In this document: positions 900-63,402 of the stretch, in pieces
Layout of the letters: each line of letters begins with the position of its first letter
Position numbering within the stretch: position 1 is the first letter of the stretch
From: Tridacna crocea
Lineage: Eukaryota; Mollusca; Bivalvia; Cardiida; Cardiidae
Direction of reading: 5' to 3'
Length of the DNA: 64,000 nucleotides
Assembly (NCBI GenBank): GCA_943736015.1
Contig: OX031058.1
Location: forward strand, 3,363,001 to 3,427,000
Made by a program: the position numbers and the translations under genes
Notes under the pieces: generated by a model
The model's input: the letters and a program-made list of their open reading frames with translations, nothing else
Database searches by the model: none
What the model was told of the DNA's origin: nothing

Positions 900-3800
900 C
901 TAGAAGCAATATAGAGAAGAGAGTACAGAAAAAGAGAAGAATTTAGAGTAAAAGTTCCGACACATAACCTCCCAAGGCAGGGATTAAAACCAGGACCTCT
1001 ACATCGCAAAGTGAACACTCTACCACATTGCTACAAAAGCTAGCTCTACAGCATGGCAGTAAAAGTGTCCCCTTATACAAACACAAGCTATACATTCTTG
1101 TCTATCTATAGGATAGACCAGTATATTACATACTCCACTACAATATGGCGATTTGTCCATGAATCTTTCAAGCACTGTTACTCTATTCTTCAACAAAGTG
1201 GATTTCTATGTGGGCTCAAATGTAACAGTTCTGACAAATTACCTACCAAGGCTATTATTGAACCAAGGACCTCTTAATCCCAAGGCAAACACTCTACCAT
1301 GTCAAAAGCTAGCTCAATAGCAAGGTAATATACGTGTGCCCTCATACAAACAAAAGCTACACATTTATATCTTTAAGTGGGATAGACCAGTATACCACAT
1401 AAGCATAAGCAAAGGCTGACACAGGGCCATCAGTGACCCCCCAGGGTTTTCATGACTATATAGAAGAACGCTTTTTCAAATACTGTGAGTAAAAAAGAAA
1501 ATGCTAGAAACCAGGATACTCTTCATTTCCCCCAGTGTTTTCTATCCATTTAAAGACAGGTCCATAACTTATAATTTTGTTAGCAATTGCTTTTAGTTTA
1601 GAAGTGCCTTAACCCTTTACCAAACAATCCCTGGTTTTTACGACCCTAAGATAGAAGCCTTTAGAAAACATTGTGGGAAAAGGAGAAAATGCTGGTAACC
1701 AGCATTTTCTCCTTTTCCTACAATGTTTTCTCCCTTGCTAGAAACAAATTTCAGTTGTTTAGTTACGTCTATTTTGTCGTCTGCAAGTGCTTTCAACTTG
1801 GACCAGTCTAAAACTTTGTCGTTTGGTAAAGGGTTAAAGGTTTTAAATCTTTACCAAACAACAAAATTGTAGACTTGTCTAATTGTAAGCAATGGCAGAC
1901 AACAAAATAAATGTGGCTAGGGAATTGAAAAATGTTTTTTGGAAGGGTAGGAAACATTTTCCCACAATGTTTTCAAATGCGTCTTTATCAGGGTCATTGA
2001 AAGTCGGGATCATGTGGTTAATAGTTAAACCATTCACTGGCAAAAGAAGGCTTTATGCTTCTCTGCTATATGTAATGCTAGCAAATCATCACATACTTAT
2101 GGATATTTCAAACTCATTTTGTTTCAAAAGCAACTGAATCAGGTGGTAGAATTGCCCTACACCATGCAGAAAATTTTTATACAGCTATAGATTTGGTCCA
2201 TGGCAGCCTGCACACTATTTTGCAGATGCATTAAGCCTCCTTTTCACAGAGTAGGGCCCAATTTGTTGTTTGGTAAAGAGTTAACCCTCCTTGGGCCAAT
2301 AACTCATTCTTAAGCATAACTCCCATAACCAAAGCTCTATCTAAACCTTTCCCCCACAACACGATTAACTCTTTCCCAAACAATCCCTGGTTTTTACGGG
2401 TCAGAAATAGAAGCCTTTTGAAAACATTGTGGGAAAAGAAGAAAATGCTGGTAGCCAGCATTTTCCCACAATGTTTTCTACCCTGTCATATACAAAAATT
2501 GTCACCTGCAAAATGCTTTCAATTTGGTCTGGTCCAAAATTTGCCGTTTGGGAAAGGGTTAACCCTTTACCACACTAAAACATATAAACTTGTCCAAATT
2601 GAAAACATTTGCACACGACAATTCCAATATGGCTCAAATGATTGAATTGTGTTCTTATGATAGGATAGAAAATATTGCAGGAAAAGGAGAAAATGCTGGT
2701 TACCAACATTTTCTCGTTTTCCTACAATGTTTTTTAAAGGGACTCTTTTTTTAGGGGTTGTTAAAACTCAGGATTGTGTGGTGCAGGGTTAAACAGACTC
2801 AAGAAACATAATGACAAGAAGTGACAAGTTTCATTAATTGATCGCTATGTTCCTAAATTGGCACTATACTATCTTCTAAATTTCTTCAAAGTAGTTTTAT
2901 CAATCTCTAACCCTTTACCAAACATATCCCTTGTTTTAACGACCCCAAGGAGGAGGCCCTCTGAAAACAATGTGGGAAAAAAAAAGAAAATGCTGGTAAG
3001 CAGCATTTTCTCCTTTCCCCCCAATGTTTTCTACCCTTCTAAAATCAAAATTCAATTTTTGAGTCACATTTATTTTGTCATCTCAAATGCTTTCAATTTG
3101 GAACATGCCAAAATTTTGTTGTTGGTATAGAGTTTAAAGGTTTCAAGCAAACTGATTACATATGGAAAAAAAAAAGTCCCATTATTATCATAGTATTAGA
3201 TTTTCCTTTTTCACTTGAACACTAGTGTACATTAAATTATTTTAACCCTTTGCAGAACCATTACCATTTTTGACAACCCTAAGGAAGAAGGGTTTAGAAA
3301 ACATTGTGAGTAAAGGGAATCACTATTTTCTCCTTTTCCCGCTATTTTTCAAATCAAAGGCAAACCCAAGCACTTCTGATGCATCTTGTTTCTGGTTTAC
3401 AAATAGTCTAAAATTTTCTGACCTTAACCCCTAACCTGCTATAAAAGTAAAGTGAAACTTTTACGCCAATAGTATAAACCCAAATTTTGCTATTTCACAG
3501 GCATTTTTTGGCAACATATCTCCTCATTGGACAGTATAGATCTAAGATTTGGGCCCGTATTCACCAACCATTCTTGAGAATATTCCTAGTCTTATTCTCC
3601 AAGGTTTTCTACTTTTGTCTGTAACACAACTTCTGATTGGTTAAACCATTTGGTTTAGCCAATCAGAAGTTGTGTTACTTACAAATGTAGAAAATTGTGG
3701 AGAATAAGACAAAGAACGTTCTAAAGAATGGTTGGTGAATATGGGTCCAGATCTAAGATAAGACCACAAAAGGTCTTAAAGTTGCTCTTATCAGCCTAAG

Positions 3801-6800
3801 GATTTAAAACATCAAACTTAATTTTTAGGTTAGCACTATAATTGGCCATAAGAGAATGTCCTAGCTTTATATATATGAATGTATGTTCATGAAATATGAA
3901 ACGCATAACAACAATCCAACTGCTATCTCCCCTTGCGTTAATTTCCTTCATTTAGTTCCTTCATCTCAGTTTAACTGCAGCATAGATCAGAATAGCAGAA
4001 TCAAAGCCTTCAGAGAACCATTGCATAACTAGCCTATCCTGCTGCTGTTGGATGTACCAGTAAATCTTACCTGACTCTATCTTGGAAAGTATTTGTCTAG
4101 CACATTTGAGAAAGGTTTCTTCCACATTTTCACCTGTAAGGGCACTGGTTTCCAAAAACATCAGATCTAGAAAACAACATTTCATCCTTTACCATACAAC
4201 CTCGAGATCTAATATCCCTTAAAAAGCTTTACAAAACATGGTTTTAAAAAAATAAAATGCTGGTTACCAACATTTTCTCTTTTTCTCGCAATATATGTTT
4301 TCTACTCTTTTGAGGGAAGACTAAACTTTTGTTTTCTGGTAAAGAGTTAAAACACTACCATAGGAAAGTAATTGTCCTTTAAAAATAATAAAATTCTCAT
4401 AGTTGAAGCTACATGTAATTAGTTGTCTATCAATGTTGCCAACATGGGTAAGTCTAAAACCTTGTTATTTGATTAACTCTATACCCTGCAACAATATTTT
4501 AGACAGGTCCAAATTCAAAGCATTTGTAGAAGACAAGTTAAATGTTGCTTTAAATCCTGGGATTTGTTTCTGAAAAGTTAGAAAACATTGTTGGAAAAGG
4601 AGAAAATGGTGCTTGCCAGCATTTTCTCCTTTTCCCACAATTTCTTCAAATATCAAGTCTTCCAAGGTAGTTAAAACTCTGAATTGTGTGGTAAAGGGAT
4701 AAGAGTTAATTCTAACTTATTCTATCTATTTGAAGGCAAATAATACACATGTGAATCTCAAAGCTTTGCCCACTGTTTTAAACAATCCTAGCAATTTTTA
4801 TAGAAATGTGACTAATAATGTTGACTTTGTGGAGTGAACAATACTAATTCATCATGGCTACTTTTCCTGTACAGATTACCAGACTTTCTTTACTGTAATT
4901 CAGATAAATGACAGCACACCTGAGCTCTATAACAGAGCCAGGAAAAACGAAAAAGAGACAAGTATGTGCACAGTTCTATAAAATACCATTTTCTTGTGCA
5001 AATCTACTCGCTTCTAGGAATGTGACTTCTCTCTCTACTTCTAAATCTTTTTTGTTCCCAACAAGAATTATCACAATATTTGGACTGGCAAGTGTCCTGG
5101 CATCTGTCAACCAGTTGGTTAAAGCATTGTAAGTTTCTCGGCTGCAACAAAAAAACAAGATTTCAGATCATATAAGAGAAGCAAAAGAATGTAATCCAAA
5201 AGCCAATTTTGTTAAGACACTTGATGAGTATATTAGACAGTATAGATGCCGTGTCAGATTGCATAATTGTGACCTATCACACAAAAAGGGACCAACTGGA
5301 AATTCTGTACCTCATTTAGATGAAAACAGATCAACTATAGTGCAGGTCAGTTTAACTCATTACCAAACGACAAAATTTTAGGTTTGTCCAAATCCAAAGC
5401 ATTTGCAGACAACAAAATAAAAGAGACTGAAAATTTGAAATTTGTTTTATGAAGGGTAGAAAACATTGTGGGAAAAGGAGAAAATGCTGGTTACCAGCAT
5501 TTTCTCCTTTTCCCACAATGTTTTCTAAAGGCTTCTTTCTCAGGGTCGTCAAAAGTAGGGATTGTGTGATAATGTGTTAAGTTGATTATTCAAAAATGAT
5601 TGTATAACAAGGTACAAGGACCACTTTTCATACAGAAAATGTCATTAAAGCGAAAAGTGTCAACCCTGGTCAGCCTGGGCAATTCGCGCAGTCTGACCAG
5701 GGTTGATACTTTTCGCAGTTCCAAGAAGGTCCCTTTTTGTAAGATGGGTCACAAATGTGCAGACTGACCTTGATCCACATTATTCAACAGTCTCACATAA
5801 TCTCGAACAAATTGCTTAAATGCTGAACATTGCGGCTCAAAAGGCACATTTTAGCCACATTTAAAGAAACCATGTAGATCAACAAAAAGCTGAATACCAC
5901 CATTTCTTCTTTTCTAACAATCTTTCTTAGCATATCAAAGGGTCAATAAAGGTCTGAATTGTGTGGTTAAGTAATTTCTCCGGTAAGAAATCATCTTTAG
6001 TTTTGATTCCTGGCCCACATAATGACATTATTAACTCTTTCCCAAACAACAAAACTTTAGACTGTTCCAGATTGAAAGCATTAGCAGATGACAAAATTTA
6101 AGTCACTCACCATTTGAAATTTGTTTTGAAAAGGTAGAAAACATTGTGAGAAAAGGAAAAAAAATTTCCTTTTCCTCCATTTATTGTAACATTCTTTTTC
6201 GGATCAGACTTTGGTCGTAGATTGGTTCACTATCTTTTTGACACACAAGTCACATTTTTTATCTCTTTCAATTTTCTTGTTTTTCTTGTATTATTACTGT
6301 ATAATGCTTGCCATTTTGGCAGAAAAACAATAAAATAATAATTATTATTATTATTTACTCTTTCCCAAACAACAAAATTTTAGACTTCTGAATTCAAAGC
6401 ATTAGCAGATAACAAAATTAAAGTGACTCAAAAATTGAAATTTGTTTTAGGAAGGGTAGAAAATATTCTGCGAAAAGGAGAAAATGCTGGTTTACCAGCA
6501 TTTTCTCCTTTTCCCACAATGTTTTCATAAAGCTCCTTTCACAGTCGTGAAACTCGGGGATTGTTTGGTAAAGAATTATACCTTTGTTTATAACAAAACC
6601 ATTATCTTTTCTTAATAGCAACAGACTGATAAACAAGGTTTCCATCTGGAAAACCACATTGAGAGAACGCTCACCTTGATATGTCATATACTAACAGGGC
6701 ACCAGCAGCACCTCTATAATAACTTCTAGTGACAGATCTGAAATCAGTGGTGAAACCTTGGTAAATACCGTAAGTCATTAACATTTATCAAAATCAGGAA

Positions 6801-63107: not shown

Positions 63108-63173
63108 AGAGGTGCTATTTACATGACAAACATGGTTATCTGATTTGACCTCGGATGAAGTTAAACCTTATTT

Positions 63174-63402
63174 ATTTCTTTACCAAACGTCAAAATTTTA
63201 TACTGGTCCAAATTGAAAGCATTTGCAGACAACAAAACAAAGGTGACTGAAAAACTGAAGTGAGCTTTCAGAAGGGTTGAAAACATCGCAGAAAAAGGAG
63301 AACATGCTGGCGACCATCATTATCTCCTTTTCCCACAATGTTTTCAAGAGGCTTGATTCGCAGGGTCGTTAAAAAGTCAGGATTGTTTGGTAAAGGGTGA
63401 AT
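63174..63402. repeat. hairpin MITE A
   Basis: Centre GAACATGCTGGCGACCATCA; ends GTAAAGGGTGAA. Confidence 0.9.

What the first reader, a model, noticed from the sequence alone, without database searches (positions are those of the whole stretch)
1609..63402. A very dense, intron-borne system of long-hairpin MITEs
About 75 copies of one foldback element occur in 64 kb. Most hold a 60-70 bp palindrome of the form GAAAACATTGTGGGAAAAGG...complement, in both orientations. Most lie in introns, so the two pre-mRNAs would each carry dozens of strong hairpins. Several copies show matching changes in both arms (24970, 25267, 47225, 50260), so the palindrome is preserved or regenerated by gene conversion. 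The hairpins could feed small-RNA production or A-to-I editing; that role is inference.
Basis: partly seen in the sequence, partly recalled or inferred. Interest (0 to 1): 0.85.

Follow-up and report, generated by a model that had tools for sequence, protein, structure and literature searches.

The report
Million-copy clam transposon with mirrored core
A short jumping-DNA family, probably in a giant clam, has spread to about a million copies and roughly a fifth of the genome, and its lineages keep a perfect 67-letter mirror-image core even where the rest of the element has become unrecognisable, which suggests that the mirror itself matters for jumping.

Summary
The foldback family is real and not special to this window. 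The window holds 106 copies or pieces, 76 with the whole palindrome. Eighteen arbitrary 10-kb stretches, one per chromosome, hold 230 copies and 23% coverage, so about 1.3 million copies (0.95-1.75) and 16-31% of a 1.05-Gb genome. An intact palindrome centre occurs at 221,718 places, reversed control 0. The element is 229 bp, TTAACYCTTTACC...GGTAAAGGGTTAA, inserts at TTAA and is best read as a piggyBac-type MITE; no autonomous partner was found. Its 67-nt palindrome is perfect in all four subfamily consensuses. Two subfamilies whose outer left regions match at 38% (random 27%) differ in the palindrome by four mirrored pairs and no one-armed change. Individual copies decay mostly one arm at a time; apart from one amplified lineage, roughly 1-5% of changed pairs are mirrored, though at one pair mirrored doubles recur in 9-12 lineages. 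Best reading: the palindrome is a cis-element selected in mobile copies, with rare arm-to-arm templating supplying mirrored variants. Small-RNA or editing roles are untested.

The parts
1609..1837 (-). full-length MITE copy
   Evidence: profile 1-229
1843..2028 (+). MITE copy with 42-bp deletion in palindrome
2365..2562 (-). MITE copy with internal deletions, overlapping the next copy by 4 bp at its end
2559..2792 (+). full-length MITE copy
2908..3134 (-). near full-length MITE copy
4473..4702 (+). full-length MITE copy
5352..5580 (+). full-length MITE copy, perfect palindrome (35-bp arms 5457-5527)
6355..6577 (+). near full-length MITE copy
9183..9411 (+). full-length MITE copy
10705..10932 (-). 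near full-length MITE copy
11444..11667 (-). full-length MITE copy
12467..12699 (+). full-length MITE copy, diverged
13047..13273 (+). full-length MITE copy, overlaps a piece at 13270 by 4 bp
19846..20069 (+). full-length MITE copy
23160..23387 (-). near full-length MITE copy, diverged
23825..24055 (+). full-length MITE copy
24970..25198 (+). full-length MITE copy with one mirrored pair change (115/167)
25269..25497 (+). near full-length MITE copy with one mirrored pair change (117/165)
25939..26184 (+). full-length MITE copy, diverged
32505..32732 (+). full-length MITE copy
34053..34276 (+). full-length MITE copy
34853..35076 (+). full-length MITE copy, perfect palindrome (34953-35023)
36003..36231 (-). 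full-length MITE copy
37205..37433 (-). full-length MITE copy, diverged
37883..38107 (-). near full-length MITE copy
38653..38881 (-). full-length MITE copy, diverged
39076..39303 (-). full-length MITE copy
46680..46902 (+). full-length MITE copy
47223..47445 (+). MITE copy (profile 6-228), one mirrored pair change (115/167); not counted among the 44 near full-length copies
48202..48422 (+). near full-length MITE copy
49488..49717 (+). full-length MITE copy
50260..50487 (-). full-length MITE copy with two mirrored pair changes (115/167, 119/163)
51818..52040 (+). full-length MITE copy
53158..53386 (+). full-length MITE copy, diverged
53569..53778 (-). MITE copy with 19-bp deletion outside the palindrome
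54472..54669 (-). MITE copy with 31-bp deletion in palindrome
55886..56113 (+). near full-length MITE copy
56410..56635 (-). near full-length MITE copy
59402..59630 (+). full-length MITE copy
60602..60824 (-). near full-length MITE copy
61759..61987 (-). full-length MITE copy sharing TTAA 61984-61987 with the next copy
61984..62214 (+). full-length MITE copy
62520..62725 (+). MITE copy with 21-bp deletion outside the palindrome
62879..63106 (+). near full-length MITE copy
63172..63400 (+). near full-length MITE copy
1441..63400 (.). range holding the remaining partial copies of the 106 in the window (all but one piece at 57-108)
   Evidence: all coordinates listed

Best explanation
This is a non-autonomous TTAA-inserting DNA transposon family of piggyBac type that has amplified to roughly a million copies in a giant-clam-like genome. 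Shown: TTAA duplication, conserved tips, very high copy number, and a 67-nt palindrome that is perfect in each of four subfamily consensuses and changes less than the rest of the element. Inferred: the palindrome is a cis-acting element that mobile copies need, most simply a dyad or cruciform site used by the transposase or a host factor during excision. Source copies that lose it stop spreading, so each new lineage starts with a perfect palindrome, while dead copies decay one arm at a time. Rare arm-to-arm templating supplies mirrored pair changes, a few of which found new lineages.
For: TTAA at both ends in 90 of 96 full-length copies; joined flanks with a single TTAA match an unoccupied paralogous sequence in two cases not made of the MITE itself (L010_5324 against the window, L011_799 against L013). 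Tips CYCTTTACC resemble resident piggyBac ends TTAACCCTTTATATAC, TTAACCCATTTATGCC and TTAACCCTTTCAG. Private changes per site: arms 0.048, outer 0.090-0.094, TTAA 0.02-0.035; with CpG columns removed the arm deficit holds for A/T sites (0.029 against 0.056) and G/C sites (0.053 against 0.075). Main and sub2: outer left 0.38, palindrome 0.87, tips 0.96 identity; all 4 pair differences mirrored, chance about 7e-6 if 8 differences fell at random. Mirrored G-C at 131/151: 13 observed against about 0.24 expected; non-mirrored doubles with G, any centre base, 4 against about 2.0 expected.
Against: No autonomous partner with these tips was found: 12 of 118 piggyBac transposase matches were inspected and 3 families had readable ends. 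TTAA is also used by Kolobok and Sola3 (recalled). The left tip of the main consensus is CTC, not CCY. The lower arm rate could in part reflect unsampled source diversity in the outer regions. A 67-nt palindrome is much longer than the 14-19-bp transposase palindromes of piggyBat and piggyBac (PMC11707139, passages). Four of the five mirrored lineage changes are G-C/C-G or A-T/T-A swaps, which neither usual transitions nor G-U intermediates would favour (from consensuses). The palindrome is deletion-prone: 35 of 71 deletions of 6 bp or more have their midpoint in it, against 29% of length, P = 0.0004.
Confidence: 0.55

Rival explanations
1. Mutational maintenance: the palindrome has no function; replication template switching between arms (quasi-palindrome correction) keeps arms complementary, and lineages inherit the result.
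For: Mirrored private doubles 21 against permutation mean 6.8. At pair 131/151 mirrored types exceed independence: C-G 227, T-A 7, G-C 13 against about 1.1, 1.0 and 0.24. By outer sequence the 13 G-C copies fall in 9-12 lineages, the 7 T-A copies in 4, and the 17 C-G copies examined in 3 (9 at the strictest cut). Arm homogenisation by template switching is published for yeast (PMC8604942, abstract).
Against: Mirrored pairs are a small minority: 21 of 471 private changed pairs in the sample; 13 against about 416 one-armed G changes and 7 against about 832 T changes at 131/151. At 135/147, 112 mirrored against about 39 expected could be partly age mixing. Most C-G copies (15 of 17) are one lineage at the two looser cuts. 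Unbiased correction does not lower the substitution rate of arms, yet it is about halved. The stratified permutation weakens the excess to 21 against 10.4 +- 3.0, a value that the highest of 1000 shuffles reached.
Confidence: 0.2
2. RNA-level role: transcribed hairpins, many in introns, act as precursors of small RNAs or as ADAR targets, and this is why the structure is kept.
For: Strong fold (z -9.7); 60 copies within the supported VPS54 span; mirrored lineage changes keep pairing.
Against: Copies occur in both orientations inside VPS54 (32 + and 28 -), at general genome density. Copies lose pairing: 15 of 213 still 100% paired. No Rfam match at gathering score in the window. No small-RNA or editing data available.
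Confidence: 0.1
3. Passive accumulation: a few source elements happened to be palindromic and the core is shared only by descent, without selection.
For: Copies decay; haplotypes mostly follow lineages.
Against: Outer regions of main and sub2 have diverged to near-random while palindrome and tips have not; differences in the core consensuses are all mirrored.
Confidence: 0.15

Closest known systems
CMITE families of Acropora corals (PMC2872659)
   Same: TTAA duplication, CCCTTT-type tips, small non-coding elements linked to piggyBac-like transposons, and an internal region conserved between families whose other parts differ (abstract, sections 10 and 15 and passages). Tandem copies are described there; here I saw partial tandem duplications.
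   Different: About 100 bp and an estimated 1,600 copies in A. millepora there, 229 bp and about a million here. The terms palindrom, hairpin, secondary structure and stem-loop do not occur in that main text. In CMITEs the internal region is more conserved than the TIRs; here the extreme tips are also highly conserved. Sequence relation could not be tested: the consensus is only in a figure.
piggyBac / piggyBat transposon ends (PMC11707139)
   Same: Transposase C-terminal domain dimers bind palindromes, in piggyBat within about 120 bp of the left tip (passages); here the palindrome starts 107 bp from the left and 55 bp from the right end.
   Different: Those palindromes are about 14-19 bp, imperfect in piggyBat, and asymmetrically placed; here one perfect 67-nt palindrome.
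MADE1-type palindromic MITEs and foldback elements (recalled)
   Same: Hairpin-forming short DNA transposons.
   Different: There the palindrome is made by the terminal repeats; here it is internal and separate from short terminal repeats.
Published repeat classes of Tridacna crocea (PMC10858879 passages, PMC11700175 section 9 and passages)
   Same: Very high repeat content; a dominant class of comparable size.
   Different: One paper lists 34.9% as unknown DNA transposons with 1.03% Helitron, the other 22.48% rolling-circle; neither describes this element in the text I saw.

Membership tests
MITE (miniature non-autonomous DNA transposon) | Short, uniform length, terminal inverted repeats, high copy number | tested here: met
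   229 bp consensus, 96 full-length copies peaking at 228-231 bp, tips TTAACYCTTTACC; 221,718 intact centres genome-wide. Too short to encode a transposase.
piggyBac superfamily | TTAA target-site duplication | tested here: met
   90 of 96 TTAA/TTAA; two paralogous empty sites with one TTAA
piggyBac superfamily | Tips beginning CCY | tested here: met
   7 of 8 ends of the four subfamily consensuses begin CCC; the exception is the left end of the main consensus, CTC
piggyBac superfamily | Mobilised by a piggyBac transposase recognising the same ends | tested here: inconclusive
   118 DDE_Tnp_1_7 matches exist; 12 loci inspected, 3 families with ends resolved, none with the MITE tips beyond TTAACCCWTT
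CMITE group | Internal region conserved between families with differing flanks | tested here: met
CMITE group | Sequence homology of the internal region | not testable with these tools
   CMITE consensus is in a figure only
Foldback element | Inverted repeats forming the ends and making up most of the element | tested here: not met
   Palindrome is internal at 108-174 of 229; terminal repeats are short
Small-RNA precursor or ADAR substrate | Arm-derived small RNAs or edited reads | not testable with these tools
   no RNA data

The most novel reading that the evidence does not exclude
The 67-nt palindrome is a functional cassette shared by otherwise unrelated piggyBac-type MITE families: a hairpin or cruciform element that drives amplification. 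It evolves by mirrored substitutions generated by arm-to-arm templating and filtered by transposition, and it has made a single MITE group occupy about a fifth of an animal genome.
Probability: 0.35. Interest if true: 0.78.

Novelty: new variant of a known kind. Interest (0 to 1): 0.58.

Why it matters
One short DNA transposon group covering about a fifth of a 1-Gb animal genome would rank with the most successful repeats known, and could explain why published repeat classes for the likely host disagree (1% against 22% rolling-circle; inference). About a million palindromes of known consensus also form a natural experiment on mirrored mutation and on what MITEs need, beyond their tips, in order to spread.

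Tried and rejected
Rejected: that the window or introns are special (density is genome-wide). Not supported: that cross-family gene conversion homogenises the palindrome. All 17 sub2 and 7 sub3 copies with both outer sides typed carry their own haplotype in readable arms; 2 copies were flagged as exceptions (L008/2157-2590, a 434-bp composite, and L004/7485-7237). Limits of that test: 42 of 150 main copies vary in both arms and say nothing, and 10 copies pair a main-like left side with a right side nearest sub3. Rejected as general explanation: ongoing correction in all copies (442 one-armed against 21 mirrored private pairs). Considered and not supported: foldback element; Helitron (TTAA duplication and TIRs).

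Led nowhere: DNA similarity search with the sub2 consensus returned no match, because common words are skipped. The genome-wide sub2 palindrome count did not complete. Looking for the MITE tips around 12 piggyBac transposase loci found MITE copies in the flanks but no matching element ends. Rfam gave nothing at gathering score. An ORF at 16178-16510 that I first took for a VPS54 exon (which then gave 67 copies in the span) has no tblastn support; the counts here use the supported exons. Paper searches for a description of such an element; none of the titles and abstract starts listed describes it.
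Full report
WHAT IS THERE. A profile built from the window and sample finds 106 non-overlapping copies or fragments in the window, 44 near full length and 76 with the whole palindrome. The consensus is 229 bp. It begins TTAACYCTTTACC, ends GGTAAAGGGTTAA, and carries at 108-174 a palindrome of 33-bp arms around one base. As RNA the whole consensus folds at -87.9 kcal/mol against -46.7 +- 4.2 for 200 shuffles.

HOW MUCH OF IT. The window lies in a 1,048,827,098-base genome with 18 chromosome-size contigs. The arm 20-mer occurs 144,012 + 142,978 times exactly, reversed control 0. 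A 35-place palindrome centre with seven free positions occurs at 221,718 places on the + strand pattern, control 0; this is a lower bound on copies. In 18 stretches of 10 kb, all at 10.00-10.01 Mb of C1-C18 (arbitrary, not random), I count 230 copies (1 to 30 per stretch) and 23.0% coverage; bootstrap over stretches gives 9.1-16.7 copies per 10 kb and 16-31% coverage, hence 0.95-1.75 million copies, fragments included; whole palindromes extrapolate to about 1.0 million (the window-only profile gave 221 copies and 22.5%). After masking it, self-comparison of the 244 kb shows nothing of that size: 14.2% of bases have 2 or more other matches and 3.3% have 10 or more (low-complexity filter on).

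HOST. Inference only. VPS54 exon pieces are 36-76% identical to the human protein as I recalled it. If right, the dominant repeat may be what was labelled 'DNA, unknown, 34.9%' in one paper and 'rolling-circle, 22.48%' in another; that this element lies behind either label is my inference and was not tested.

WHAT KIND OF ELEMENT. Of 96 full-length copies 90 have TTAA at both ends. Joined flanks with a single TTAA match unoccupied paralogous sequences in two cases not made of the MITE itself (L010_5324 with window 22092-21960, 80% over 134 columns; L011_799 with L013, 77% over 95) (most of the 232 matches of that call lie in other MITE copies). So TTAA is duplicated on insertion. Resident piggyBac elements end in TTAACCCTTTATATAC, TTAACCCATTTATGCC and TTAACCCTTTCAG. 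None has the MITE's tips beyond the first bases, so the autonomous partner is not identified. Of 2,013 TTAA sites in 244 kb, 283 are ends of recognised copies, and 13 of these are shared by two abutting copies.

AGE. Nearest-neighbour divergence among 185 near-full copies ranges from 4.6 to 33%, median 12%; the main cluster averages 11.6% from its consensus and sub2 6.3%. No sampled pair is nearly identical, so a current burst is not seen in this sample.

THE PALINDROME IS WHAT IS CONSERVED. Clustering gives main (110), sub2 (16), sub8 (10) and sub3 (7) of 185, the rest small clusters and singletons; each of these four consensuses has zero arm mismatches. Main and sub2 share 38% (left) and 35% (right) of the outer region (random 27 +- 5% for the left), 96% of the tips and 87% of the palindrome; main and sub3 share 69% (left), 65% (right), 88% (tips) and 91% (palindrome). 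All arm differences between these consensuses are mirrored: 4 pairs main/sub2, 3 pairs main/sub3; the single unpaired centre base also varies. The chance that 8 random differences form 4 mirrored pairs is 7e-6, and 6 forming 3 is 6e-5. In the first 100 listed centres genome-wide, counted by eye, 81 are the main haplotype and the sub2-like and sub3-like haplotypes recur as wholes; 7 rows are asymmetric.

COPIES DECAY, BUT ARMS LESS. Changes private to a copy against its nearest neighbours: arms 269/5588 and 269/5556, outer 1330/14750 and 733/7828; TTAA 0.035 and 0.019, tips 0.067 and 0.080. Without CpG columns and with unanimous neighbours the arm deficit remains. Mean arm-arm pairing is 0.867 against 0.826 expected from each arm's own divergence; 15 of 213 copies are perfectly paired. 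Deletions of 6 bp or more: 35 of 71 have their midpoint in the palindrome, P = 0.0004.

MIRRORED CHANGES. Over all 336 aligned copies there are 172 complementary doubles against 48 expected, much of it subfamily haplotypes, beside 542 left-only and 545 right-only changes (by subtraction). Among private changes there are 21 complementary doubles, 8 other doubles and 442 one-armed changes; permutation gives 6.8, or 10.4 +- 3.0 when copies are stratified by load, with the largest of 1000 stratified shuffles also 21, so support there is moderate. Genome-wide at pair 131/151, with the rest of the 35-mer intact, the first 100 of 2,772 rows hold C, T and G one-armed changes in 32, 30 and 15 rows, mirrored ones in 21 rows (11 places) and one non-mirrored double (counted by eye). 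With about 180,000 intact main centres (0.81 x 221,718) independence predicts about 1.1, 1.0 and 0.24 mirrored copies; observed are 227 C-G, 7 T-A and 13 G-C (centre base A or T only). Non-mirrored doubles with G: 4 against about 2.0 expected. Outer sequences of 17 of the 227, all 7 and all 13 were compared: at the two looser cuts 15 of 17 C-G copies are one lineage plus 2 unrelated ones (9 clusters at the strictest cut), T-A falls in 4 lineages at every cut and G-C in 9-12. Random young copies give on average 5.7-10.1 clusters for 17, 3.3-5.0 for 7 and 4.7-8.0 for 13, so the G-C copies are at least as scattered as random ones. At pair 135/147, 112 mirrored against about 39 expected from 5,509 rows, an excess that age mixing could partly explain. 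So mirrored doubles do recur independently, but outside the amplified C-G lineage they are only about 1-5% of changed pairs.

READING. Constraint must act on the copies that spread, since dead copies are free to decay, and it acts on the symmetry and not only on the letters. Templating alone would not lower arm divergence. The simplest account is a cis-element for transposition: piggyBac-family transposases do bind palindromes with paired C-terminal domains (PMC11707139, passages), and coral CMITEs show a conserved internal region in TTAA/CCCTTT MITEs whose authors proposed a role in transposition (PMC2872659, abstract and sections 10 and 15). The size of the palindrome and the missing partner are the weak points.

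RNA ROLES. Copies sit between VPS54 exons in both orientations (32 and 28) and overlap none of the 16 supported exon pieces, as expected of tolerated insertions. Nothing here tests small RNAs or editing.

Noticed in passing
window 41889-43551 (-): Tc5/pogo-type transposase pieces (DDE_1 and HTH_Tnp_Tc5), in three open frames.
   Followed up: partly
window 12043-12117, 20364-20408, 34653-34751: A second palindromic repeat family (arms like CCTATGTTGTGGGTACTCATTAGAATCGTCTC).
   Followed up: no
window 3540-3759 and 10087-10228; L018:7911-8051: A third hairpin family with arms around TTCTGATTGGCTAAACC.
   Followed up: no
L009:1355-1434, L017:7558-7630, L012:9604-9667: A fourth short hairpin repeat, GTGTAGATCAAGATCAGACTGCACA with its complement. 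Palindromic repeats seem to be a habit of this genome.
   Followed up: no
window 27219-27868, 28872-29979, 44218-44788: 156-bp-period tandem repeats of the TTTTGTCCGGAGCATATCTCC type, also dispersed in the sample.
   Followed up: no
window 40514-40718: 104-bp partial tandem duplication inside a MITE copy; abutting partial copies also at 24512-24912 and 7438-7803.
   Followed up: no
L017:5475-5999, L015:9363-9994: Chains of MITE copies abutting end to end, most sharing the terminal TTAA: insertion into the ends of earlier copies.
   Followed up: partly
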